28,480 bases of DNA from positions 1 to 28,480 of IMG/VR virus record IMGVR_UViG_3300025127_000191, one strand, 5' to 3'. This document shows, one piece after another, positions 1 to 28,480 of this stretch. A program made the translations under genes and the position numbers. How positions within the stretch are numbered: the stretch's first letter is position 1; every line of letters starts with the position of its first letter. Origin of the DNA: a virus. Below the pieces are notes generated by a model. It was not told the origin of the DNA, did not search any database, and saw only the letters and a program-made list of their open reading frames with translations.

Positions 1-147
1 GGCACATCTGACTCTGTACCAGCACGACTGTCTGACGGTGAGTTTGTTATCACAGCGAAAGCCGTTCGAGGTGCAGGCGGTGGAGATAGAGATATCGGAG
101 CGGCACGTATGTATGATATGATGGCAGAACTGGAGGCGCAGGGCTAA
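1..147 (+). CDS. C-terminal end of a phage structural protein (partial)
   Basis: An open frame enters from the left edge and stops with TAA at 145-147. The 48 visible residues include SDGEFVITAKAVRGAGGGDR and end MYDMMAELEAQG. The 'SDGEFV' type of C-terminus is one I associate with large virion or tail-related proteins of marine phages; this is a memory-based family resemblance, not a search. The stop overlaps the next start by one base (TAATG), so the two genes are translationally coupled. The gene start and most of the protein lie outside the window, so no function is assigned beyond probable virion component. Confidence 0.7.
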   Translation, partial: GTSDSVPARLSDGEFVITAKAVRGAGGGDRDIGAARMYDMMAELEAQG

Positions 148-1004
148 TGTCAACAGCAACCCAAACAGTTACGACCAGGCTGCCTGAGTTTCAGGAACAG
201 TACATCGCTGATCTTCTAGCTTCGGCGCAGAATCTGTTTAAACCAACAGAGGAAGGTGGCATGGGTTTGACTATGCCGTTTGTCCAGAAGCAGCTTGCTG
301 GACTTTCGGAGGGTCAACAAAAAGCCATTTCTTCCGCCTTGTCTGGTGTCGGAGCATATCAGCCGTTTTTAGAGCAGGCGCAAGGTGCGCTTGGAGAAGC
401 TGCTGAGTTTATGTCGCCTGATGCATACAAGCAGTTCATGGATCCATATCTGGATGATGTGGTTCAACGAGCGCAAGCTGATATTGGAAGACAAGGACAG
501 ATTCAAGGGCGCAGCGCAGATGCTGCCGCTGTAAATCAGGGTGCCTTTGGTGGATCCAGGTCGGCAGTTCTTCAAGGGGAGATTGGAAGAAACACGTTAG
601 AGCAGCAAGCTAAAACTGGTGAACGTCTTCGCAGTGCAGGTTTCACGCAGGCGAGTCAATTGGCGCAGCAAGCAGCAGGGCAAAAGCTAGCACAGGCTCA
701 AGGCATAGCGGGGCTTGGTCAACTGGGTCAGCAGTTGGGTGCTCAAGACATTAATACGCTACTAGGCATTGGTGGGTTGCAACAGGGTCAGGCACAACAG
801 GCTCTAAATGTTGGACAAGCAAACGCACTAGCGCAGCAGCAGCTTCCATTCCAACAGCTTGGTTTCTTAGGAGACATTTTCCGTGGAGTTCCGGCGTTGC
901 AACAACAAACGTCTCAACAATACATGCCCCCGGCTAGTTTAGCTTCACAGCTTTTTGGTCTCGGTATTGCAGGTCTCGGTGCTTTTGGAGAGTTTGGAAA
1001 ATGA
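147..1004 (+). CDS. Gln/Ala/Gly-rich putative virion protein, 285 aa
   Basis: The start ATG overlaps the previous stop (TAATG at 145-149) and the stop overlaps the next start (ATGA at 1001-1004), which places it firmly in the rightward structural operon. The protein is mostly predicted helix and is rich in Gln, Ala and Gly. Its middle carries GAFGGSRSAVLQGEIGRNT followed by a Gln/Ala-rich helical stretch. I associate the 'GxFGGSR' segment with conserved marine phage virion proteins near tail and internal-protein genes. No enzymatic motif, signal peptide or clear membrane segment is visible. An internal virion or tail-tube-associated role is inference from context. Confidence 0.75.
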   Translation: MSTATQTVTTRLPEFQEQYIADLLASAQNLFKPTEEGGMGLTMPFVQKQLAGLSEGQQKAISSALSGVGAYQPFLEQAQGALGEAAEFMSPDAYKQFMDPYLDDVVQRAQADIGRQGQIQGRSADAAAVNQGAFGGSRSAVLQGEIGRNTLEQQAKTGERLRSAGFTQASQLAQQAAGQKLAQAQGIAGLGQLGQQLGAQDINTLLGIGGLQQGQAQQALNVGQANALAQQQLPFQQLGFLGDIFRGVPALQQQTSQQYMPPASLASQLFGLGIAGLGAFGEFGK

Positions 1005-2194
1005 TTGGAAGAGGACCGCTTGATCGTCGGATGTTCGTAAATCCGCAACAGCGCCGCAGTATGGCGCGCATGCCACAAGGGATCTTGGCCTCCGGTCCAC
1101 GGATCATGAACGCGGCTATGAACCAGTTTGGTGCGGACGGTTCTATCGTGACGATACCCGACATCGGAGGACCGATAATACAAGACGGTATCGTGACGAT
1201 ACCTGAAGTGGTTCTGCCGAACACTTCGGACGCTTTGCCAAATAGTCAGAACACTCCGCAAGGTTCCCCGCCTGTTGTTGGCAATGAAGATAACATCGGC
1301 ACTCTTGACGACGTTGCCCCAGATAATCAACCCGCACCGATACCGTCCCCGCCGAAGCCCAAGCCGTCCAAAGAAAAGGTACAGGAAATCATCAAGGCTC
1401 GGGAAGAATCCAACACCCCGTCGTCGCAACAGACGATGGAAAGCATCATGGACAAGATCGCAAAACTTCGCGGCACCGCCGATGAAAAGAAAACCAAAAA
1501 GCAAGCGTTGGATGAAGCAAAACAATTTTTAAAGGATGCGGGTGTAGACAACGTAGATGACATCCGCTCCAGTCGCGACTTCATGCTGATGACCCTTGGT
1601 CTAAACATTGCGGCTGGGGGCAGTGATCGTGCTTTAGACAATATCATAGCGGGAAGCAAAGAGACTCTAGGAACTTTCGGTGCCCTGAAAGCCAAGGAGA
1701 AAGAAGCAGAACGCTCAATTAATCTTGCTGCCGCAGAAATGGCAAAATCTGAAATTGCCGCTCAACAAGAGCGCGGCTTGAAAGCCAGCGAGTTGGAGAT
1801 TCAAGCACTGACCAGTCAGCTTGAACAGCAGATCAAAGCAGAGCTTGGCCCGGATGATTTACAGATTGCAAGAGCCTTGATGGAGGATGATGACACTCTG
1901 TCACTCTCTGACGCGATTACAATTACCAAGGCGCAGAGGTCTGGGTTCAAAGCGTCGATACTAGATGAGTTGAAGAAACAGTATCCAAACGCCAATCAAG
2001 GTCAACTTGCACTCATTGTTGCTAATGCCGGGTATCTCAAGCAAATCGTTGACGAACAAGGCTTGGAAGGCTTGGCAAAAATCCTTGGTGTCACTACCGT
2101 TGAGGCGGAATCAATCGCATCACAGGCTGGTGCTGCTGCCGAAATACCGGACCAAGATCCAGGCGGCGCGCAGAATGTAATCGTTATCGAGTAG
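1001..2194 (+). CDS. Coiled-coil putative virion-associated protein, 397 aa
   Basis: The gene starts in the ATGA overlap with the preceding gene and stops ten bases before the 1398-residue gene. The N-terminus (about residues 1-45) is basic and Met/Arg-rich. It is followed by two near-identical blocks, GSIVTIPD and DGIVTIPE, at about residues 47-68, encoded by a repeated 14-base sequence (1144-1157 and 1190-1203). A Pro-rich linker (about 105-125) leads into a long charged region with coiled-coil character (about 125-290). No catalytic motif is recognised. Its position between virion genes suggests a minor structural or scaffold-like protein, which is inference. Confidence 0.7.
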   Translation: MIGRGPLDRRMFVNPQQRRSMARMPQGILASGPRIMNAAMNQFGADGSIVTIPDIGGPIIQDGIVTIPEVVLPNTSDALPNSQNTPQGSPPVVGNEDNIGTLDDVAPDNQPAPIPSPPKPKPSKEKVQEIIKAREESNTPSSQQTMESIMDKIAKLRGTADEKKTKKQALDEAKQFLKDAGVDNVDDIRSSRDFMLMTLGLNIAAGGSDRALDNIIAGSKETLGTFGALKAKEKEAERSINLAAAEMAKSEIAAQQERGLKASELEIQALTSQLEQQIKAELGPDDLQIARALMEDDDTLSLSDAITITKAQRSGFKASILDELKKQYPNANQGQLALIVANAGYLKQIVDEQGLEGLAKILGVTTVEAESIASQAGAAAEIPDQDPGGAQNVIVIE

Positions 2195-2204
2195 GAACAG
2201 ACCC

Positions 2205-5200
2205 ATGCCGATATACGAGTATCAGGGTCAACGATACCAGCTACCCGACGGCCTGACCAACGAACAGGCTAAAGAAAAAATCCTAGAATATATCGCGTCA
2301 CAACAGGCCGCCGCACCACGAACCACGGAGCAGCCCGAGAGCGAGGGCTTCTTGCAGGAGGTCGGTGAGGGCATCGTAGGTGGCGTTATAGAAATGGGTT
2401 CGGGCATCGCCGAAACAGCGGCGCTCTTTCCAGATTATTTCGCAGAAACCGATTACGCTAGGCAGATATCTAGGGCCAAGCAAGATTTGAAGGACTCTCT
2501 GGGCATCGATCCCGCAGGACCGGCGGGGCAGATTACAGAAGCCATCGTGCAATTTGCCATCCCCGGTTTGGGGGCAGCAGGCGTAATCGGAAAAGCCGCG
2601 AAACTTCGAAATCTTGGAAAAACAACCACTCGGGCTGCTCAAATAGTCGGGGCGGGGGCTGCTGATGCAATTGTTGCCTCTGACGGCACCACCACCGTGG
2701 GTGATTTTTTTGGTGGCGGTCCTTCGATGACATCCAAAGACATTGGTTTGTCGGGCAAGGCAGAAGCAGAGCGCCGGATCGGAAACAAACTCAAAGTCGG
2801 CCTTGAGGCCGCTGGTGCTACCGCCGCTATCGAACCAGCATTAAAGGCTATGGGGTACAGCGCCAAGGCAGGTGTGTCTGGAGTTCGCGCCCTCGCGGAC
2901 GTAACAAGGGTCGCACCGGCATTGTCAAAGACGGGCGAGATTCTTTCAAGACCGATCCAAAAGGCCATTGAACAAGATAATCTGTATGGCCGAGTTTGGG
3001 ATCGATCTCTTGGAGTTTTTCGTTCTAGAGGCATGTTGCCACAAAACGTGTTTGAGAAACGATCTAATCTAACGAGTCGAGTCGAATCTGAGTTGAGTAA
3101 GTCAGGTCGTGTCTTGCGAAAACTGCAAACGAAATTGAATAAAATTTTTGATGCAGACAACCCATCGTTTCGTAACATCATGATCAACGGATCATCGACC
3201 ACGCGCGTCGAAGCGATGAACTTGTTGTATTCATTTATGACACGAGATCCTGATTACATCGCAGCGGCCACGCGTGAGGCTCAACGTCTTGGAATCCGAC
3301 AGTTTGATCCAGCGTCCACGGACGATCTTGCTCAGTTCTTACCGGACTTTATGAGAGATGCCGCGATTACCATGCGAGGTCAAATCGATCTGGTATCTCA
3401 AGAAATTGCAGAATCCCCTTTTGTTACTTCTGGGCTGTTTCCTGACATCAGAGAAATTATTAACGACGAGCTTGGAACATATATGCGTCGTAAATACGCT
3501 GCGTTTGAAAATCCAAACTGGTTCAGCACAGAAGAGTTCCAACAAGCATACGAGAACGCTAAACAGTTTTATATAGACAACCCAGATATCGCGGAAAGTC
3601 TGTACACGCGCTTTGTCGGACCAATCCCTGACACTGGAATCACGACCGGTATCGGCATCAACCGTCGAACAGATCGAGTTGCTGTAGAGGACTTGCTCGA
3701 CAACTTTGTGTCTCGATACCAAGCTCCACGGTCTGCAACAGCAATGGATGGGACTAATACAAGAATCGTTCGTGATCGCTTACGCACATCGTTGTTCACT
3801 CGTCGCAAGATGACAGATCCTATCCTTCGTTCTGTGTTGGGAGAAATAAAGGATCCACTAGAAACGTATGTGAGCACCATATCTGATTTAGCAGAGTTTC
3901 GAGTCGTAGATGATTTTTACAACTATCTTGATCAAAACATTCTTGATCAGGGCGACCTGCTTATAACACCACAAACATACGAGGCGCTTCCTGATGTCCT
4001 GCCCAACGGTCTGTTGAAAAGGGATGTATATTCAAAACTAGGCGATGAGCCGCTCCCTCCTGCACCGGGGCAAACTGTTGGTGATTTGAAAGCAGACATT
4101 CAATTTGGATCTATTCAAGGTAACTATGCGAAAAGATCTTTGTTCAACGAACTTACCAGAACAACTCAAATTGCTGGGTTAGATCTTGATAATTTTATAC
4201 TTCGAGCGACTTACGGAAACTTTTTAAAAGCAAAGGGGGCCACACAGTTTGCCAAAACTGTGCTGTCTCCGATCACACAAGTTCGTAACGTCACGTCGGC
4301 AGCTTTGTTCGCCGCTGCACAAGGCAATATTGGACGCGGTGCCAAGTTAGGCGAATCCGTCAACATGGTTTTCGACAACATCTACAAAGGCGAAATACCA
4401 AAGTTGATGCGGATGCTTGGCATAACTGCCGACGAAGCACGAGCAACTTACTTTCGCAAGTTACAGGAAGTGGGCGTTGTTGGTACGCAGGCCCAAATCC
4501 GAGAGATCGACAAGCTGTTGGAAGAGGGCTTGGGTGGGTCACTCAAGAGTTCTATCGATGATTTGGGCGTAGACGTTGGCTCCAACAAGGGCGTGTTCCG
4601 CCGCACTCTTGGCCGCTCCAAGCTGGGACAGTTTTTGGATAGTGCGATCATCGAACGTGGAAAAGGACTGACCACGAGGGCACGAGATTACTATCAAGGC
4701 GGCGATGATATTTGGAAGGTATACAATTTTGAGTTTGAAAAGAGCAAGCTGGTGTCCGCGCTTGGCAGTGAAGATGCGGCAGAAGCGTACGCTCGATCTG
4801 TCGGGTTTGACACGATTGATGAATATGCAGCCGACATCGTAAAAAACGTCGTTCCAAATTATCTTCGTGTCCCTGAAGCGGTGAAGTCCTGGCGCAAGTT
4901 ACCGTTTGGTAACTTCATAGCGTTTCCAGCAGAAATTATCCGGACAAGTTCAAACACACTGAAATATGCAATACGTGAGTTGCAGTCTGAAAATAGAGCC
5001 GTGCGTGACATAGGCATGCGCCGACTGGCTGGTTTTACTTTGACGGCTGGTGTTGCTGGTCCCGCCTTACAGCAGTTGGGTATGTACGCTACCGGGGTAG
5101 CTCAAGATCAAATGGAAGCGTTGCAACGTAGAGTGGCTCCGTGGAGTCGAGCGTCTACATTGATTCCAACCAGCGTTGAAGTAAAAAAAGGCCCGGATGG

Positions 5201-6401
5201 AGAACAAAAGCCGTATGTCACCGGCTACATAGATTACAGTTTCTTCAATCCGTACGATTATTTTAATCGCCCGGCCCGAGCCATCATGGAAGCTGCGGCT
5301 AGAAACGAATTACGTGGTCTTGATGGTGAGGGTCTTTTTAGAGATGCAGCGGTTGGTGTAGTCTCCGAAATGTTCAAACCATTCAAAGATCTTTCTATCA
5401 TCGCGGAAAAGATTTTGGATGTAGAACGTGGTGAAACAAAGACGGGTCAAAAGGTTTACAACAAACCTCAAGGTGAATTTAGGGGTGACGATGGTACAGA
5501 GATCGCAGTCAAGTCGTTCTTCCACATCGCCGATGCATTCAACCCAGGAGCCATAGAACAGTTTGTTGGACGAGTTGATGTGCAGCCTGAGACGGGTGAA
5601 GTTGGCTACATCCCCAGCCGTATCGTGACGGCCATGACTGCACCGCACGGGCGTGATGCTCGTGGTAATGTTCGTAATGTTGAAGAAGAACTGCTGTCCT
5701 TCTTCACCGGTCTGCGAGAGGCAGACATAAAACCAGAAAACGTGGTGAAGTACGGAGCATATCAGTATGGAGATGTGGTTCGTGGGATCAGTGCGGACTT
5801 CAACTCAACACTGCGCGTAGAGACTCAAATGGATCCGATGAATGTGATCGAAGCGTATGCGCGCGCAAACGAAAAATTGTTCCGAGAGGAAAACAAAATT
5901 TTTGGTCTTGTTAAAGACATGCGGACCTTGGGCATGCCAGATCGAGAGATTCGAAAGGCACTGAAAAAAGCAAACGTAGGCAACGTCAACAGAATTATGC
6001 GGGGACTTTTTACACCAAAACAAATCTCCGACAACATAAAGAAAGTGGCGCGGAAAAACGTGCAAGAGTTTGGCGGCACTTTCCCGTTGAAAGAACTCAA
6101 CGACATTCGCAGAATTTTGAATCGTCGACCTTTGACAGGCGCGATAAATCTTGATGTGTCGGGTATGAAGAAAAGGTTTGATGTCAGTCAGGCGACGATA
6201 CAGCCTCCAGTTTCGACGCCGACAACCACGGACGTTGCCCCAGCGCCGGCGGCACCCGTGGAAATGGGGGCCGCTCCGATTCTCCCTAGTGCAGCGGCCC
6301 CCGCACCTATATCACAAGGACCACTGACCACGGATCTCGGATCATTGGTAAAGGATCCAAGGACCAGACAATTAATTGAAAGACAAAGGGGACTGGGATG
6401 A
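2205..6401 (+). CDS. Giant putative internal virion/ejection-type protein, 1398 aa
   Basis: This is the largest gene in the window. The N-terminus MPIYEYQGQRYQLPDG resembles a short N-terminal module that I remember on several marine phage virion proteins. Glycine-rich hydrophobic stretches at about residues 50-65 and 105-160 look capable of membrane insertion. The long middle is helical. Around residues 895-970 lies a distinctive block with LPFGNFIAFPAEIIRTS and then a hydrophobic segment, FTLTAGVAGPALQQLGMYA. The last 65 residues are a Pro/Ala-rich tail. I see no lytic transglycosylase or RNA polymerase motif. Size, hydrophobic segments and position just before the lysozyme fit a genome-ejection or 'large polyvalent' virion protein. 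That role is inference. Confidence 0.75.
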   Translation: MPIYEYQGQRYQLPDGLTNEQAKEKILEYIASQQAAAPRTTEQPESEGFLQEVGEGIVGGVIEMGSGIAETAALFPDYFAETDYARQISRAKQDLKDSLGIDPAGPAGQITEAIVQFAIPGLGAAGVIGKAAKLRNLGKTTTRAAQIVGAGAADAIVASDGTTTVGDFFGGGPSMTSKDIGLSGKAEAERRIGNKLKVGLEAAGATAAIEPALKAMGYSAKAGVSGVRALADVTRVAPALSKTGEILSRPIQKAIEQDNLYGRVWDRSLGVFRSRGMLPQNVFEKRSNLTSRVESELSKSGRVLRKLQTKLNKIFDADNPSFRNIMINGSSTTRVEAMNLLYSFMTRDPDYIAAATREAQRLGIRQFDPASTDDLAQFLPDFMRDAAITMRGQIDLVSQEIAESPFVTSGLFPDIREIINDELGTYMRRKYAAFENPNWFSTEEFQQAYENAKQFYIDNPDIAESLYTRFVGPIPDTGITTGIGINRRTDRVAVEDLLDNFVSRYQAPRSATAMDGTNTRIVRDRLRTSLFTRRKMTDPILRSVLGEIKDPLETYVSTISDLAEFRVVDDFYNYLDQNILDQGDLLITPQTYEALPDVLPNGLLKRDVYSKLGDEPLPPAPGQTVGDLKADIQFGSIQGNYAKRSLFNELTRTTQIAGLDLDNFILRATYGNFLKAKGATQFAKTVLSPITQVRNVTSAALFAAAQGNIGRGAKLGESVNMVFDNIYKGEIPKLMRMLGITADEARATYFRKLQEVGVVGTQAQIREIDKLLEEGLGGSLKSSIDDLGVDVGSNKGVFRRTLGRSKLGQFLDSAIIERGKGLTTRARDYYQGGDDIWKVYNFEFEKSKLVSALGSEDAAEAYARSVGFDTIDEYAADIVKNVVPNYLRVPEAVKSWRKLPFGNFIAFPAEIIRTSSNTLKYAIRELQSENRAVRDIGMRRLAGFTLTAGVAGPALQQLGMYATGVAQDQMEALQRRVAPWSRASTLIPTSVEVKKGPDGEQKPYVTGYIDYSFFNPYDYFNRPARAIMEAAARNELRGLDGEGLFRDAAVGVVSEMFKPFKDLSIIAEKILDVERGETKTGQKVYNKPQGEFRGDDGTEIAVKSFFHIADAFNPGAIEQFVGRVDVQPETGEVGYIPSRIVTAMTAPHGRDARGNVRNVEEELLSFFTGLREADIKPENVVKYGAYQYGDVVRGISADFNSTLRVETQMDPMNVIEAYARANEKLFREENKIFGLVKDMRTLGMPDREIRKALKKANVGNVNRIMRGLFTPKQISDNIKKVARKNVQEFGGTFPLKELNDIRRILNRRPLTGAINLDVSGMKKRFDVSQATIQPPVSTPTTTDVAPAPAAPVEMGAAPILPSAAAPAPISQGPLTTDLGSLVKDPRTRQLIERQRGLG

Positions 6402-21714: not shown

Positions 21715-22118
21715 GTTCCGACTGCCTGCGGGAATTGATTGACGATTCTGTATCGACCATCCACCAGTTTGATGGTGCTGCCGTTCAGCTTCAGCTTCCT
21801 GCGTAGAGACCAGATGGTTGAGTGAACCGTGCCCAGCTTCAGCTTGGTTCTTTGGACCAAGTCAGCAGATGATAGATCGGTGTTTCGGAGCAGCCTCCAG
21901 ATTTTCCGCTCGGCTTTGGTCAACCCACTCACGGCCCGTGCCTTCGCCTTTGCAGTTGGCACCTCAACGATCTTCGCGCTGCCGGAGATCCCTTTGGCAT
22001 TCTCCAACGCTTCGGTGAGTGCAACTTTACGGTTCATCTGATTGTTGATGATCGAGGTGCATGTCTCGATCTGCTGCTCAAGCCACTCAACGTGGCCCTG
22101 TGGTACTATTGTCTTCAT
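21711..22118 (-). CDS. Winged-helix DNA-binding protein, candidate regulator, 135 aa
   Basis: The N-terminal half is a coiled coil (HVEWLEQQIETCTSIINNQM, then KVALTEALENAKG). The C-terminal half, GLTKAERKIWRLLRNTDLSS, ADLVQRTKLKLGTVHSTIWS and LRRKLKLNGSTIKL, is a winged helix with a recognition helix around TVHSTIWSLRR and a two-stranded wing. It is probably dimeric. ATG 22118 was chosen because GGGAG lies six bases upstream. Its own promoter-like site P4 carries the shared 17-bp element, so autoregulation and control of P1-P3 is a natural hypothesis. It is co-transcribed with the 72-residue gene. Confidence 0.82.
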   Translation of the reverse strand: MKTIVPQGHVEWLEQQIETCTSIINNQMNRKVALTEALENAKGISGSAKIVEVPTAKAKARAVSGLTKAERKIWRLLRNTDLSSADLVQRTKLKLGTVHSTIWSLRRKLKLNGSTIKLVDGRYRIVNQFPQAVGT

Positions 22119-22191: not shown

Positions 22192-22341
22192 GCTCACTTT
22201 GAGCGCCGGGGTTACTGTTGCGCCCCAGCAACAGTCCTCGAAAAAAGTTTCCCCCTCCCCCCTTTTTTGCTTGACTGCGGTCCTGTGCGCGCAACATATA
22301 CAAGCATTGATAAATTCATTGGCCCGTATTATCGTTCGGAC
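22192..22341 (+). promoter_or_regulatory. Leader region of terL with a hairpin
   Basis: ACTGTTGC (22214-22221) and GCAACAGT (22228-22235) form a perfect 8-bp stem with a six-base loop, followed at a distance by pyrimidine-rich sequence (22250-22268). TTGACT (22271-22276) and TATACA (22297-22302), 20 bp apart, are a poor promoter candidate. TATTAT at 22327 has no suitable -35. No gene is seen in this 150-bp stretch. Confidence 0.4.
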
Positions 22342-23829
22342 ATGGACACGGGTAACTTAGACCTCCTCCCTGAAGAAGTGCTGAAAGAGATGTTGATGCT
22401 GGAAGAACAGCGTCAGCGGATCGAGTTGCGTGAATCGGCCAGAGATAATTTTATGGAATACGTCATGCATGTGTATGACGGGTTCATTGTAGGGCGGCAC
22501 CATAAAATCATTGCTGAGAAGCTTGAGCGCATAGCATCGGGTGACCTGAAGCGTTTGATTGTGAACATGCCGCCTCGTCATTCGAAGTCAGAGTTTGCTT
22601 CGTATTTGATGCCTAGCTGGTTCCTGGGCCGCAATCCAAAGTTAAAGATCATTCAGGCGACGATGAACACGGAGTTGGCGGTACGGTTTGGCCGCAAGGT
22701 TCGTGATTTGATTGCCGACCCGATCTATCACGATGTTTTTCCTGACACGGATTTGAAGGCGGACAGTCAGGCTGCTGGTCGGTGGGAGACGAGCGTGGGC
22801 GGCGAGTATTTTGCTGCTGGTGTTGGTGCGGCGATGACGGGTCGTGGTGCGGATTTGTTGATTATTGATGACCCGCACTCGGAGCAGGATGCGTTGTCCT
22901 CGTCTGCTTATGACAATACGTATGAGTGGTACACATCTGGGCCGCGTCAGCGTTTGCAGCCTGGTGGTTCGATCATCATTGTTCAAACGCGGTGGTCAAA
23001 GAAGGATTTGACGGGTCGGTTACTACAATCGCAGGCGGCGGATATAATGTCAGATCAGTGGGAGGTAGTTGAGTTTCCTGCGATTATGCCGTCGGGGGAA
23101 CCGTTATGGCCTGAGTTTTGGCAAAAAGACGAGCTTTTGAAGGTCAAGGCTTCGTTGTCCGTGGGCAAATGGAATGCACAGTGGCAGCAGAATCCGGTAT
23201 CGGAAGAGACGGCTGTCATCAAGCGTGAGTGGTGGAACGAGTGGGATGAGGAGGACATTCCGAAGTTAGACTACATTATTCAGTCTTATGACACGGCGTA
23301 CAGCAAGCGGGAGACGGCGGACTATTCTGCGATTACGACGTGGGGTGTATTTGAGCCGCATAGCAATGGTGATCAGCATTTGATTTTGTTGGATGCGAAG
23401 CGTGGCCGTTGGAGCTTTCCTGAGTTGAAACAGGTTGCATTGGAGGAAAACGAGTATTGGGAGCCTGACATGATGTTGATCGAGGCCAAGGCGAGTGGTA
23501 CGCCGTTGGCGGATGAGATGCGTTTGTTGAATTTACCGGTGCTTACGTTTTCGCCTGGTCGTCGCAAGGGCAGTGGCGGCATAGATAAGATGACACGGAT
23601 GCACATGGCATCGCCGATTTTCGAGTCAGGAAAAGTTTGGTATCCTGCGGCGCAGAAGTTCGCGGACGAGGTGATAGAAGAAGTTGCTTCTTTTCCAAAT
23701 GGCGATCATGATGACTTCTGTGATAGCATGACAATGGCTCTGATGCGTTTTCGTCAGGGTGGTTTTATCAGTTTACAGGGCGAAGAGCTAGAAGACTGGT
23801 TGCCCTCTAAGAAGCGAGACTATTACTAA
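22342..23829 (+). CDS. terL: Terminase large subunit, 495 aa
   Basis: This is the packaging motor ATPase and headful/site nuclease. The ATPase domain has the Walker A-like NMPPRHSKSE (75-84), with the atypical phage spacing, and Walker B LLIIDD (172-177). The nuclease domain has Asp317 in QSYDTAYSKR, Glu381 in LIEAKASGTPLADE and Asp461 in HDDFCDSM, the expected acidic triad of the RNase H-like fold. The start is set at ATG 22342 (MDTGNLDLLP) because the homologous part begins there; upstream codons look non-coding and no strong ribosome binding site is seen. The stop overlaps the next start by one base (TAATG). Confidence 0.95.
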   Translation: MDTGNLDLLPEEVLKEMLMLEEQRQRIELRESARDNFMEYVMHVYDGFIVGRHHKIIAEKLERIASGDLKRLIVNMPPRHSKSEFASYLMPSWFLGRNPKLKIIQATMNTELAVRFGRKVRDLIADPIYHDVFPDTDLKADSQAAGRWETSVGGEYFAAGVGAAMTGRGADLLIIDDPHSEQDALSSSAYDNTYEWYTSGPRQRLQPGGSIIIVQTRWSKKDLTGRLLQSQAADIMSDQWEVVEFPAIMPSGEPLWPEFWQKDELLKVKASLSVGKWNAQWQQNPVSEETAVIKREWWNEWDEEDIPKLDYIIQSYDTAYSKRETADYSAITTWGVFEPHSNGDQHLILLDAKRGRWSFPELKQVALEENEYWEPDMMLIEAKASGTPLADEMRLLNLPVLTFSPGRRKGSGGIDKMTRMHMASPIFESGKVWYPAAQKFADEVIEEVASFPNGDHDDFCDSMTMALMRFRQGGFISLQGEELEDWLPSKKRDYY

Positions 23830-26800
23830 TGGTAGCACCTTCTCAACCTAATCTTCGTTCAGGTGTCATGACGTTGCCTCGTCGCAAGCCGACTCCTGTT
23901 GAACGTGCGATGGCAAATCGGCTTTCGCTTGCTGAACAATTTCAGAACAGGCGGCCGATGGGCGAGGTATTGGCGGAGGGCGCGGATGTTTTGGAGGGTG
24001 TTGGTGTTGGCGCGGTAGCTGGCATCGGTGGGTTTTTCCCGGATGTTTTGGCGATATTGGGCCGTGATGCCCCGATGTTGTTTTCTAAATATATGTTGGG
24101 TAAACCGCTGTCTGAGGATGAGAACGCGGTTTTTCGTGCCTTGACCAAAGCACAGGATGCTTTCGGTGCCGAGGCGATCATGCGCGGCATGGGTTACGGC
24201 GAGAGGATAGACGCGCCGAGTGACAGTGACGATGCGTTGTCTCGTGCGGGTGTAAATCCGTTTAGGCAGGGTGCACTTGCCGGCGAGTTTTTGGCTGATC
24301 CGTTTGCTGCTTTGAAGGCGGCGAAGTTAGCAAAGTCTGCGTTTGGTGGTTCGCGGTCCACGGACGCTTTAGCAGATGCAGCGGCGGCTGATGCGGCAGC
24401 ACGTGAGGATCAAGCACGAGCGTTGTTACTCGATCCAGGAGAATTGCCTGAGATTAAGAAAAAGCGGGACGTAGATGATCTTGCGGCGGGTGCTTTTTTT
24501 AATGCAGGGCCGCGCAATTTAGACTATGCGGGGCTGTCAGACAATGATCTTGTTCAGGCTTACAATCGTGCAGTAGACACCTACAACCAGCGGCGCACTG
24601 GCGGAACCACGGACGACACGTTCACGGTTACTGAGTTTGATCGCGTTCAACAGGACATCCAAAGCGAGATTGCTGGTCGTAGAGGTAACGAGCATCGGCG
24701 TCTTACGGAGGACGAGTTAACAGAGGCTCGTGATCGACAAGAAGCTGAACAGCAGTTTGATGCCATAGATTCGCTTCTCACTGACCGCGTTGATGAGACT
24801 GTGCTGACCGCCCAAAATGTTGCGCGTGTTGGCCGAGGGGACGTTGAAGATGAGATCCCGGCGTTGTTTTCGGAGGGATTTCAGAGTCAGCCGGGCGGCA
24901 TTGGTTCATTAGACTCCAAAAATCCCGTTTTTGCACAGAACGCGGTAAAGATCGGTGGAGAAGATGAGTTTGTTGGCAAAGTTCGACATTATTCTCCGGC
25001 GCTAACTAGCTTTGTGAATATGGTAGATAGCGGCAAGTTTGCACGGGCCGCGAACAAAAACGGCGAGATTACTGGAACGCAGTTCTTGAGCATGCTCAAG
25101 GGTGATGCAGGCGTGATGTCCGAGGTTAAAGATTCGCCTTTTGAGACGGCGTTGCTCAAGGATCCGAACCAGAAGTTTACGGCGGAAGAGATTCGTCGCT
25201 TGATGACGACAAGACTGCCGCAGACTCGCACCCGCTTATTCTTGAACAGAACGGTTGATGCTGAAGAACAGGCAGGCACAGCACCCGCAAGAATCGCTGG
25301 ACGAACAAGTAGGTATGAGTCGTCTCAAATGCCGGATGAGTTGTTGGCTTATGAAAGCGCGAATCGGAATGATCCAGATCCTCGGGTTGGGTATTTTACA
25401 ATGGTTATGTCCAACACCACAGGCAACGTAATAGACGTGCCTGGATTTGGTCTGATGAAAGCCGCTGACATTGACAATCATGATTATTTCAGTCCGTACC
25501 CCGGTTTTTACGGTCATGCCCGAGGTATCGGTATCAAAGAATATAACACCAATGATCTGTATGGTTACGCGGCAGAGCTTCAATCTAACCACGTTTCAAA
25601 CGCAGATAGTGGCAGTAAAATTCTTTCTCTTTACTCTGGTACGGGTAAGGACGAATACTACAGGACACTCGACCAACGATTAGACGGCTGGCGGAAGGGA
25701 TTTCAGCGAGGCGCGGAACAAAGCATTCGCGTCCCTTTTACTCCAGAAGTTTCACGGTTGATGCAGCAGCGGCTAGAACTTCGGCCTGATGCCTTACGTA
25801 AGGTAGAAGAAGCGTCGGAAAATTTAACTTTAGCAGAAAAGCGTATTGCACAACGCAGACGCGAATCACCTAGCTTTGACGATTTTGAGCCGTTCCGAGC
25901 AGACCCTCAAGGTGATGATTTTCGTGCGGATTCATTGCGCGCAGGAATTGCATACGCACAAAGCATGCCTCAAGTAGGCAGGTTAAGAAGCACTATAAAA
26001 AGAAACTATAAAAAGCTGTTTTTTCCTGAAAGGATATCTGGTGGTTACCTTAATGTTAGAGAAACTGGGGATCCGTATTTTCCATCATTAGACACAATTG
26101 GGGCACAGGGGTCGATCAAAGAGTTTCTTGATTCAACTGGACAACCCTCTTCTCCAGTTTTGCTTGGTTCTTTACGAAGTCAGATAAGAGACACGCGCCG
26201 ATTAATTACAAGAATGTCGGAGAAGGATTACGTTATTGGGAATCCCGAAATAAAAAGAAGATTTCCTATAGTTGTGGAATCCAGCCCCAGAGAAGCTCCG
26301 GGCAGAGAAAACAAGACAGTGGCAGAAATTTTCTCTAATCTTCCCGAAGAAGAGCAGCTAGAGATTGCTGGCCTGGAGATATCCACAAAACTCGCGAACG
26401 ACCATTATGTAAACACCCTTACAGGACAAATCTTTTCGGACCCTGTGTTTTTGAAAAAACTGCGGGGTCTGTCTCAAGACGAAAGGGATCTTCTTCAAGC
26501 GCCAGGTGGCAGCCTCGACCTTGCTGGAAAAATTGCAAGTTCGTTTAGTAAAGCGGATAAGCAGAAGTTTGCAGAATATGCAGAAACAGCGCAGCAAGAA
26601 ACAGACAGATTATTCGGCGCAAATGCATCTGGATTATCAAGAGAACAACGGTTTTTAATTTTAAACTCAAAATCACTAACATCTAATGAGTCTTTAAAAA
26701 ATTTCATCAACATGTCAATAAGAGAGGACACGGTTAACAACATTTTTAAATACGCAGATCATCTTGAGGACGAACGAAAGATCAGTGAACTTCGTAACTT

Positions 26801-27521
26801 TATCTCTGATCAAACTCTTACAAAAGAATATCAAGATGCGTTCGCAGAGTTTGAGCAGAGGCTTGCTCAACACCCCGACGGCGAAAACATGAAAACGCTG
26901 GTAGAAATTGCCAAAGCAACTTCTGAAAGCGAAGGAAGAGAGGGCTTCATATCTCCAGCGCCGTACAGTAGCGAAGTAGATTTTTATTCTGGTGGATTGC
27001 GTATGTTGGCTAAAGAGCTTCAGGCTCGGGGCTACAAAGGCATGATTGTTCCCGATTGGAGAGCGGTAGCAAACGAGCGGGGTTTTGCAGGGGGCCGAGT
27101 GGGCGAGGAGGCCCGACCCGACGATGATTTTGTCGGACCAATGGAAAAAACAAATGAAACGGCGGCGAACAGATTTGCTAAATTCAAAAAATTATATGGC
27201 ACCGCGCTGGATAAAAGTATTCGAGAGTTCGAAAAGGCTGGAGGCACCGTTGAAGTTAGGAACACGCAGCCTGGCAACGAGTTTTATATAGAATCTGGCG
27301 GCAGCCCAAAAAAACTTGTGGCAAAAGCATCTCAATACGACCCCAACCTCGACAGCATCGTTGAAGTGGACGTTCCGTTACGAATTCTTAGGTTTGACAC
27401 CCCAGAAGGCAAAGAACTTCTTAGTGGCCCGATCCGCCGCGCAAAAGGCGGCCCCGTAGACTTGAGACCAAAAAAGCTGGTACACTCGGGAATCGGCGGT
27501 ATGGCAAGGCAGGTGATGTGA
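23829..27521 (+). CDS. Large polyvalent-type protein between terL and portal, 1230 aa
   Basis: The start overlaps the terL stop (TAATG). An N-terminal glycine-rich hydrophobic stretch (about residues 50-80, VGVGAVAGIGGFFPDVLAIL) could associate with membranes. Later parts match, from memory, a phage-wide module of unknown function: KVRHYSPALTSF with ITGTQFLSML (about 383-425), GHARGIG then AAELQSNH (about 562-587, the usual 'EIQSD' site), RMLAKELQARGYKGMIVPDW (about 1058-1077), and KLYGTALDKSIREFEKAGG (about 1121-1139). The module is divergent here, with Asn for the usual Asp. The ending RAKGGPVDLRPKKL is basic. It may be a virion protein delivered with DNA; that is inference. Confidence 0.8.
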   Translation: MVAPSQPNLRSGVMTLPRRKPTPVERAMANRLSLAEQFQNRRPMGEVLAEGADVLEGVGVGAVAGIGGFFPDVLAILGRDAPMLFSKYMLGKPLSEDENAVFRALTKAQDAFGAEAIMRGMGYGERIDAPSDSDDALSRAGVNPFRQGALAGEFLADPFAALKAAKLAKSAFGGSRSTDALADAAAADAAAREDQARALLLDPGELPEIKKKRDVDDLAAGAFFNAGPRNLDYAGLSDNDLVQAYNRAVDTYNQRRTGGTTDDTFTVTEFDRVQQDIQSEIAGRRGNEHRRLTEDELTEARDRQEAEQQFDAIDSLLTDRVDETVLTAQNVARVGRGDVEDEIPALFSEGFQSQPGGIGSLDSKNPVFAQNAVKIGGEDEFVGKVRHYSPALTSFVNMVDSGKFARAANKNGEITGTQFLSMLKGDAGVMSEVKDSPFETALLKDPNQKFTAEEIRRLMTTRLPQTRTRLFLNRTVDAEEQAGTAPARIAGRTSRYESSQMPDELLAYESANRNDPDPRVGYFTMVMSNTTGNVIDVPGFGLMKAADIDNHDYFSPYPGFYGHARGIGIKEYNTNDLYGYAAELQSNHVSNADSGSKILSLYSGTGKDEYYRTLDQRLDGWRKGFQRGAEQSIRVPFTPEVSRLMQQRLELRPDALRKVEEASENLTLAEKRIAQRRRESPSFDDFEPFRADPQGDDFRADSLRAGIAYAQSMPQVGRLRSTIKRNYKKLFFPERISGGYLNVRETGDPYFPSLDTIGAQGSIKEFLDSTGQPSSPVLLGSLRSQIRDTRRLITRMSEKDYVIGNPEIKRRFPIVVESSPREAPGRENKTVAEIFSNLPEEEQLEIAGLEISTKLANDHYVNTLTGQIFSDPVFLKKLRGLSQDERDLLQAPGGSLDLAGKIASSFSKADKQKFAEYAETAQQETDRLFGANASGLSREQRFLILNSKSLTSNESLKNFINMSIREDTVNNIFKYADHLEDERKISELRNFISDQTLTKEYQDAFAEFEQRLAQHPDGENMKTLVEIAKATSESEGREGFISPAPYSSEVDFYSGGLRMLAKELQARGYKGMIVPDWRAVANERGFAGGRVGEEARPDDDFVGPMEKTNETAANRFAKFKKLYGTALDKSIREFEKAGGTVEVRNTQPGNEFYIESGGSPKKLVAKASQYDPNLDSIVEVDVPLRILRFDTPEGKELLSGPIRRAKGGPVDLRPKKLVHSGIGGMARQVM

Positions 27522-27796
27522 TGGACTATAAAGAAGGAAGACAGATGCTGATTGCCAGTCTTCGTAATCAGCAAGAAATAATAAAGGGTTCTTTGAAGGA
27601 TCCTGACATACGAACTCCCGAAGTTCGCAGTGCGCTTATGAAAAGCATTCTGGATCTTGAAGATCAAATACGTGAGATTTCAATTGCAGGCGACTTAGGT
27701 GGAACTCGCATGCACAAGAAAGGCGGCGCAGTGAAGAAAAAACGAGGTGGCGCGATTATGAAAAAACGAGGTGGCACCTTTAAGGGGACATTCTGA
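27521..27796 (+). CDS. Small protein with basic KKRGG repeats, 91 aa
   Basis: The N-terminal two thirds are helical (MDYKEGRQMLIASLRNQQEI, then SALMKSILDLEDQIREI). The tail has KKGGAVKKKRGGAIMKKRGG and ends TFKGTF. ATG 27521 overlaps the previous stop by one base (TGATG); GTG 27518 is an alternative. The stop overlaps the next start. The Gly/Lys tail may bind nucleic acid. The FKGTF ending resembles the FKGIF ending of the next protein. No family name is offered. Confidence 0.78.
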   Translation: MDYKEGRQMLIASLRNQQEIIKGSLKDPDIRTPEVRSALMKSILDLEDQIREISIAGDLGGTRMHKKGGAVKKKRGGAIMKKRGGTFKGTF

Positions 27797-28011
27797 TGGC
27801 AAAGAAAAAAGACGACATTAAAGACGAAAAGCTTCTGGCAAAACTTCGTGACAGGTTTTATGACCCAAAGCCGGGCGAGACAGATTACTCAGCGACGATG
27901 TCATTTGACGAGTACGTCAAACGCATTGGTCCGCCCAAGAAAGCTGCCGGCGGCATGGTCAAAGGTTTTAGCCCCATTGCTCGTCCGCAGAAGTTCAAAG
28001 GAATCTTTTAA
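27796..28011 (+). CDS. Small basic protein ending FKGIF, 71 aa
   Basis: The protein starts MAKKKDDIKDEKLLAKLRDR, has an acidic middle, and ends GGMVKGFSPIARPQKFKGIF. Its start overlaps the previous stop (TGATG) and its stop overlaps the portal start (TAATG), so it is translationally coupled to the portal gene. I recall small proteins with similar Gly/Lys-rich tails and a 'RPxKFxG' ending near portal genes of marine phages. Function is unknown; a minor capsid or assembly factor is possible. Confidence 0.78.
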   Translation: MAKKKDDIKDEKLLAKLRDRFYDPKPGETDYSATMSFDEYVKRIGPPKKAAGGMVKGFSPIARPQKFKGIF

Positions 28012-28480
28012 TGGCACTTCCTCCACAGACAGTAGACATGGCGATGGGTCCAGGCGGCCCGGTGCAGCAGATGCCCGAAGAAATGACAGTCGAACTGCCT
28101 ATGGAGGACACGCTTCCAGAGGGCATTGAGATGGCTGGCATGGAAGAGATGGTCGAGGTCCAGGCTGAGATGTACGACCATAACGCCAATCTAGCCGAGG
28201 TTCTGGATGACTCGACACTTGGGTCTTTGTCGTCTGATTTGCGGGGCAAGGTGGATGATGACAAGGAATCCCGTGAGGACTGGGAAGAGGCTATTGCCAA
28301 GGGCTTGAAGTTACTTGGTGTGAATTACGAAGAACGTAACGAGCCGTTTATGGGTGCAAGTGGTGTGCACCACCCGCTTCTGAGCGAGGCGGTGACGCAG
28401 TTTCAGGCGCAGGCGTACAAAGAGATGCTGCCGGCAGGCGGACCTGTGAAGACTCAAATCCTTGGTGCATCAAACAAGAT
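28011..28480 (+). CDS. Portal protein, N-terminal 156 residues (partial)
   Basis: The frame runs off the right edge. An acidic, Met-rich N-terminus (MALPPQTVDMAMGPGG, then several Glu/Met segments) is followed by RNEPFMGASGVHHPLLSEAV and TQFQAQAYKEMLPAGGPVKT. The 'GASGVxHPLLxEAVxQFQAQAYKEMLP' region is one I recognise from portal proteins of marine tailed phages. The portal forms the dodecameric ring at the capsid vertex through which DNA is packaged. The order terL, large protein, two small proteins, portal supports this call. Confidence 0.88.
   Translation, partial: MALPPQTVDMAMGPGGPVQQMPEEMTVELPMEDTLPEGIEMAGMEEMVEVQAEMYDHNANLAEVLDDSTLGSLSSDLRGKVDDDKESREDWEEAIAKGLKLLGVNYEERNEPFMGASGVHHPLLSEAVTQFQAQAYKEMLPAGGPVKTQILGASNK

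What the first reader, a model, noticed from the sequence alone, without database searches (positions are those of the whole stretch)
23829..27521. Divergent 'ELQS' polyvalent protein placed between terL and portal
A 1230-residue protein sits where phages normally place terL directly before portal. It appears to carry a widespread phage module of unknown function usually recognised by an EIQSD core. Here the core reads AELQSNH, with Asn replacing the usual Asp. A hydrophobic glycine-rich N-terminus and a basic end suggest delivery into the host. It could be a virion-carried effector.
Basis: partly seen in the sequence, partly recalled or inferred. Interest (0 to 1): 0.6.

Follow-up and report, generated by a model that had tools for sequence, protein, structure and literature searches.

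The report
Swappable phage cargo protein, GNAT-like core
Between two nearly identical packaging genes, a common group of marine phages carries an interchangeable large cargo protein; this one contains a diverged copy of a widespread, unnamed phage domain predicted to have an acetyltransferase-like fold, so it is probably an accessory weapon carried into the host, although delivery and chemistry are unproven.

Summary
A 1230-aa ORF (23829-27521) lies between terL and portal and carries a divergent EIQSD module (ELQSN at residues 583-587). Profile-profile comparison with 69 classic EIQSDWHQ modules gives E 7.7e-10 overall, 2.6e-11 for the N-half and 1.2e-4 for the C-half (best of 30 shuffles 0.03 and 0.11). 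Relatives in the same slot read ELQSN, EMQSN, EIQSN or EVQSN, and a few EIQSD or EIQTD. Asn is therefore a clade trait, while His551, Arg565, Glu583, Gln585 and Tyr1123 stay conserved.

Two things are new. (1) The classic module, modelled at pLDDT 90, has GNAT (acetyltransferase) topology; all 50 listed structural matches are GNAT-type (Z 8-10). The usual acetyl-CoA loop motif is absent, so an acyltransferase is not established. (2) The slot is a swappable cargo site. terL and portal are 77-98% and 70-100% identical between phages, but the slot ranges from empty (86 bp) to 6.5 kb. Its proteins share a C-terminal tail (GGxVDLRxxxGIGxMARxVM type), also found on an ADP-ribosyltransferase (ART-PolyVal).

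Best explanation: an accessory polyvalent effector, probably packaged and ejected into the host. Virion presence and enzymatic activity were not testable.

The parts
22300..23829 (+). terL (terminase large subunit), left border of the cargo slot; stop codon overlaps the cargo start (TAATG)
   Evidence: phrog_38 E 1.2e-106; 61% identical to terL of Pelagibacter phage HTVC027P; sequence at the junction. The start codon is not settled: the mechanical ORF begins at 22042.
23829..27521 (+). cargo protein, 1230 aa, with divergent EIQSD module
   Evidence: ORF; family alignments A1, A2
23829..24305 (+). residues 1-159: shared N-terminal segment with Gly-rich hydrophobic stretch (about residues 52-78), conserved at 39-65% in slot relatives whose centre has diverged
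   Evidence: BLAST segments; identity table
24969..25628 (+). residues 381-600: N-half of the EIQSD module, with invariant His551, Arg565, Glu583, Gln585
   Evidence: hhalign E 2.6e-11, 7.7e-10; conservation counts
25575..25589 (+). ELQSN core, residues 583-587
   Evidence: sequence; A2 column counts: E 22/23, Q 23/23, N 20 and D 2 of 22
25671..26927 (+). residues 615-1033: helical insert between the two module halves, mostly low to medium confidence
   Evidence: secondary structure of model mc72f84c32be7
26946..27425 (+). residues 1040-1199: C-half of the module (PAPY..., QARGYKGMIVPDW, Tyr1123)
   Evidence: hhalign E 1.2e-4; P1045 27/27 and Y1123 27/27
27429..27521 (+). C-terminal tail RRAKGGPVDLRPKKLVHSGIGGMARQVM, the slot-specific tail
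   Evidence: 44 loci; tail pattern in 31/51 slot ORFs against 5/165 other ORFs, four of them terL itself
27518..27796 (+). small slot ORF (92 aa) ending KKKRGGAIMKKRGGTFKGTF, second slot tail type
   Evidence: 38 slot ORFs in related loci share the RGGTFKG tail
27796..28014 (+). small slot ORF ending GGMVKGFSPIARPQKFKGIF
   Evidence: sequence read
28011..28480 (+). portal protein, N-terminal part, right border of the slot (cut by window end)
   Evidence: 95% identical to the portal N-terminus of L002, which matches portal/head-to-tail proteins of isolated phages

Best explanation
The protein is one allele of an interchangeable cargo gene in a fixed slot between terL and portal of an abundant marine podovirus-like group. 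It has a shared N-terminal segment, a diverged EIQSD module split by a helical insert, and a slot-specific C-terminal tail. The module has a GNAT-like fold with an invariant His/Arg/Glu/Gln/Tyr set, so it is most likely an enzyme that modifies a host molecule. The likely sequence of events is: translated with the late packaging genes; recruited to the particle through the shared end segments; ejected with the DNA; acts early in infection, probably against a host defence or a host process. Shown: module homology, predicted fold of the classic module, slot swapping, shared tail. Inferred: packaging by the tail, ejection, enzymatic activity, target.
For: Module homology: E 7.7e-10, 2.6e-11, 1.2e-4 with shuffle controls. 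Fold: classic module pLDDT 89.9, all 50 listed VIA matches are GNAT-type domains or proteins containing one, Z 7.9-10.1; the window model, though poor (pLDDT 66), gives Arabidopsis NAT9 Z 7.8 over 160 residues and NatD Z 7.1 across the insert. Swapping: L132 has terL 98% and portal 99% identical but centre 24%; slot length 86 bp to 6.5 kb. Same tail on an ART-PolyVal protein above the Pfam cut-off (L181, L232). L168 (with module) and L185/L199 (no clear module) share N-terminal segment and tail but not the centre. Classic modules sit in polyvalent proteins with ART-PolyVal, PBECR5, LPD38. In HTVC028P the module protein lies among genes annotated as internal virion proteins.
Against: No virion proteomics for any member. 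The canonical GNAT pyrophosphate motif (Q/R-x-x-G-x-G/A) is missing, and a long insert sits where that loop would be. The WHQxG run of classic modules is lost in this clade. The window's own model is low confidence, and the Foldseek E-values for the GNAT match are only 0.007 to 0.2. The tail could be an assembly or stability element instead of a packaging signal.
Confidence: 0.55

Rival explanations
1. Intracellular late protein: made and used inside the producing cell (for example against competing phages or host functions) and never packaged. The tail is a localisation or stability element.
For: No evidence of particle presence; the gene sits beside packaging genes, not in the DNA-ejection gene block at window 147-6401.
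Against: Late operon position overlapping terL. Polyvalent proteins in terminase-portal phages are predicted to be packaged (PMC5512222). An EIQSD module lies among internal virion protein genes in HTVC028P.
Confidence: 0.22
2. Non-catalytic structural or chaperone protein: a GNAT-like scaffold that helps assemble the portal vertex or binds DNA through its basic ends.
For: Missing acetyl-CoA motif; basic Gly-Gly tails on every gene of the slot; fixed position next to portal. The best structural matches include the C-terminal domain of isocitrate lyase 2, which (own knowledge) is thought to sense acetyl-CoA without being an acetyltransferase.
Against: 13 of 68 loci with both borders have under 700 bp between terL and portal, down to 86 bp in L174 with terL 89% and portal 88% identical, so it is not needed for assembly. 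Invariant polar residues and extreme divergence with conserved borders suit an effector better.
Confidence: 0.15
3. Active acyl-CoA-dependent acyltransferase of GNAT type that acylates host protein, tRNA or DNA (a narrower version of the best explanation, not exclusive of it).
For: GNAT topology; GNAT toxins AtaT, KacT and TacT among the matches. GNATs are already reported in polyvalent proteins (PMC5512222 section 11).
Against: No Q/RxxGxG/A motif; variable inserts at the pyrophosphate-loop position; no Pfam acetyltransferase match in 69 classic modules.
Confidence: 0.3

Closest known systems
EIQSD(WHQ) module of phage polyvalent proteins (unnamed in Pfam; inside phrog_7348, labelled 'endolysin')
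   Same: Colinear N-half and C-half; shared His, Arg, Glu, Gln, Pro and Tyr; same predicted secondary structure order
   Different: N instead of D; WHQxG run lost; about 420-residue helical insert; no direct HMM match without the family profile
GNAT acetyltransferase superfamily (GCN5, NatD, AtaT/KacT/TacT toxins, ICL2 C-terminal domain)
   Same: Predicted topology of the classic module, Z 8-10
   Different: No canonical acetyl-CoA loop motif; large inserts; no sequence match to any acetyltransferase family
Polyvalent proteins (Iyer et al. 2017, PMC5512222)
   Same: Large multidomain phage proteins beside terminase/portal genes; classic EIQSD modules share chains with ART-PolyVal, PBECR5, LPD38, ddrB-ParB
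   Different: Only one recognisable module here; EIQSD not found in the literature searched; fixed slot with shared end segments
ART-PolyVal protein in the same slot (L181, L232)
   Same: Same position and same type of C-terminal tail
   Different: Unrelated catalytic domain, about 220-250 aa
T4 Alt and other packaged, ejected modifying enzymes
   Same: Proposed mode of action (own knowledge and PMC5512222 introduction)
   Different: Not homologous; no particle evidence here

Membership tests
EIQSD module family | Profile-level homology over the module N-half | tested here: met
   hhalign E 2.6e-11, best shuffle 0.032
EIQSD module family | Homology over the C-half (PDAPFK..W, GYDxI) | tested here: met
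   hhalign E 1.2e-4, best shuffle 0.11
EIQSD module family | Invariant polar core His, Arg, Glu, Gln, Tyr | tested here: met
   H551 23/23, R565 22/23, E583 22/23, Q585 23/23, Y1123 27/27. Equivalence of His551 and Tyr1123 to classic H221 and Y397 is by order and motif context, only partly covered by the profile alignment.
EIQSD module family | EIQSD core with Asp and following WHQxG (typical, not shown to be defining) | tested here: not met
   ELQSNHVSN here. In A3 the invariance of EIQSDWHQxG is imposed by the search pattern, so it is not proven defining; filed as a divergent subfamily, with Asp and WHQ also absent or changed in other clear members
GNAT superfamily | GNAT topology | tested here: inconclusive
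   Clear for the classic module; the window's own model is weak but agrees (Z 7.8)
GNAT superfamily | Q/R-x-x-G-x-G/A acetyl-CoA loop | tested here: not met
   Not present after the ELQSN strand, nor as an invariant in A3
GNAT superfamily | Acyl-CoA binding or transfer | not testable with these tools
   Needs biochemistry
Polyvalent proteins | Encoded beside terminase/portal genes in a large protein with conflict-type domains | tested here: met
   Position; module partners in other phages
Polyvalent proteins | Packaged in the virion | not testable with these tools
   No proteomics for a member was found

The most novel reading that the evidence does not exclude
The terL-portal slot is a phage counterpart of polymorphic-toxin loci: a fixed cargo site with shared end segments, whose C-terminal Gly-Gly/basic tail is a packaging signal that loads unrelated effectors (EIQSD/GNAT-like, ART, peptidase-like) into particles. 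The EIQSD domain would be a new GNAT-fold enzyme family lacking the usual acetyl-CoA motif.
Probability: 0.35. Interest if true: 0.85.

Novelty: new variant of a known kind. Interest (0 to 1): 0.62.

Why it matters
A fold assignment makes the family testable. The slot offers a natural library: the same borders, hundreds of contigs, different cargo, and empty versions as controls. If the tail is a packaging signal, it would help to find virion effectors by sequence and to study how phages load proteins into particles.

Tried and rejected
Pfam, PHROGs, NCBIfam, PADLOC and PDB sequence searches of the window protein: nothing above cut-off (the PUB_1 hit at E 0.008 is far below its cut-off). tblastn of the whole protein in phage records: none. 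Classic HMM against the window sequence alone was too weak (0.009 in a three-sequence search), and hhalign with only three window relatives gave E 0.0079; the link appeared only after relatives found through the tail were added. An 'endolysin' reading from phrog_7348 was set aside: that profile is 2564 positions long and the window protein itself does not match it. Structure matches of the window model are dominated by helical bundles matching the insert; these were disregarded. I first took the PH1 gene upstream of its EIQSD protein as terL; its two records disagree (TerL or portal), so it is not used as evidence. Literature search for EIQSD found nothing relevant. The survey of slot contents was drawn from portal-positive contigs, best 80 kept of at least 598.

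Full report
OBSERVATION. The ORF at 23829-27521 is real and begins at the stop codon of terL (TAATG). It is followed by two small ORFs and the portal gene. No library recognised it. Two close relatives came from IMG/VR. Searching with its last 114 residues brought 44 loci, nearly all ending in a near-identical tail, and nearly all full-length ones carrying E-x-Q-S-N.

MODULE. A degenerate DNA pattern for EIQSDWHQ collected 120 IMG/VR stretches. Their modules (A3, 69 sequences) have a shared architecture of about 450 residues. The window family (A2, 27 sequences) aligns to it with E 7.7e-10. Cut into halves, the N-half gives 2.6e-11 and the C-half 1.2e-4; 30 column shuffles gave at best 0.032 and 0.11, reversed profiles 0.15 and 0.07. 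Intermediates in the slot match both profiles (L173, L181, L186, L232). L168, which has EIQSD, matches residues 381-565 directly by BLAST at 6e-14. Residues conserved in both sets: His551, Arg565, Glu583, Gln585, Pro1045, Tyr1123. Asn587 is the rule in this clade.

FOLD. The classic module was predicted with mean pLDDT 89.9. Its strand/helix order fits beta1-alpha1-alpha2-beta2-beta3-beta4-alpha3-beta5-alpha4-beta6-beta7 of GNATs, preceded by a small helical part. Foldseek E-values are weak (0.007 to 0.2), but in the second look all 50 listed entries are GNAT-type domains or proteins containing one, Z 7.9 to 10.1: ICL2 C-terminal domain, Rv1916, AtaT, KacT, TacT, GCN5, NatD. The tool warns that Z under 8 can be a common arrangement; the uniformity of the list is what persuades. 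The window model is weak (pLDDT 66); apart from helical proteins matching the insert, the listed entries are GNATs aligned across the insert (NAT9 Z 7.8, 160 residues; NatD 7.1). The EIQSD core would sit at the end of beta4 and the conserved Tyr in alpha4 (inference from secondary structure order; no coordinates were available for superposition). The acetyl-CoA loop motif is absent, and variable inserts lie just there, so the chemistry is open.

SLOT. In related contigs terL (77-98%) and portal (70-100%) are conserved while the protein between is not. L132 is the sharpest case: terL 98%, portal 99%, N-segment 53%, centre 24%, tail 93%. Of 68 loci with both borders, 13 have under 700 bp between them and 41 have 2.5 kb or more (redundant and partly chosen through the tail, so not a frequency estimate). 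The tail pattern occurs in 31 of 51 slot ORFs of at least 180 aa and in 5 of 165 other ORFs from the same loci, four of those being terL. It is shared by proteins otherwise unrelated by BLAST: EIQSD-type, ART-PolyVal (L181, L232; for L181 Pfam 35.4 bits against a cut-off of 31.2), an LPD23-like protein with HEVQH (L184; weak, below the Pfam cut-off), L202, L210. L168 and L185/L199 share N-segment and tail but not the centre. More distant isolated phages hold other genes in the slot: a PcfJ-like protein in DSL-LC04, hypothetical proteins in HTVC027P and 023Pt_psg01.

CONTEXT OF THE CLASSIC MODULE. Full-length classic proteins hold ART-PolyVal, PBECR5, LPD38, ddrB-ParB and strawberry-notch helicase domains, the repertoire of polyvalent proteins (PMC5512222). 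That paper already lists two RimI-like GNAT families in polyvalent proteins; whether EIQSD is one of them could not be checked by sequence, but no classic module matches a Pfam acetyltransferase. In HTVC028P the module protein lies among genes annotated as internal virion proteins. In PH1 it occupies the N-terminal part (about residues 1-416) of a protein whose remainder, but not that part, is conserved in Edwardsiella, Vibrio and Dickeya phages, where some records call it tail tape measure.

MECHANISM. Most likely: an accessory, swappable effector translated with packaging genes, loaded via the shared ends, ejected, acting early on a host molecule. Steps after translation are inference. My probabilities: module homology 0.97; GNAT-like fold 0.85; swappable accessory slot 0.9; particle delivery 0.6; acyltransferase 0.3.

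Noticed in passing
L181:3-650 and L232:2670-3413: ART-PolyVal protein in the terL-portal slot with a GGxIDLRxGIGxLF tail, followed by a second tailed ORF carrying an EIQSD-type module: two tailed cargo genes in tandem.
   Followed up: partly
window 27518-27796 and 27796-28014; 38 ORFs in related loci: Small slot ORFs share a different Gly-Gly/basic C-terminal tail, RGGTFKG[TVI][FY] (or QKFKGIF); every gene between terL and portal in the window ends in a basic Gly-Gly tail.
   Followed up: partly
phrog_7348 (66 of 69 classic modules match): This profile is labelled 'endolysin', so EIQSD-module proteins are likely to be mis-annotated as lysins (for example the 12-kb 'lysin' gene of Nostoc phage Nsp-JY18, L126).
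   Followed up: no
L125 (Pseudoalteromonas phage PH1): The gene upstream of the EIQSD protein is called TerL in KX365747 and portal in NC_031908; the two records disagree.
   Followed up: no
L043:2312-12598: One 3429-residue protein carries two EIQSD modules plus a GGDEF (diguanylate cyclase) domain.
   Followed up: no
L170:4819-7074 and L184:21-2306: Slot proteins with HExxH-like motifs (HEAAH, HEVQH), possible zinc peptidase cargo.
   Followed up: no
L174: Contig with terL and portal 89% and 88% identical to the query but only 86 bp between them: an empty slot.
   Followed up: yes
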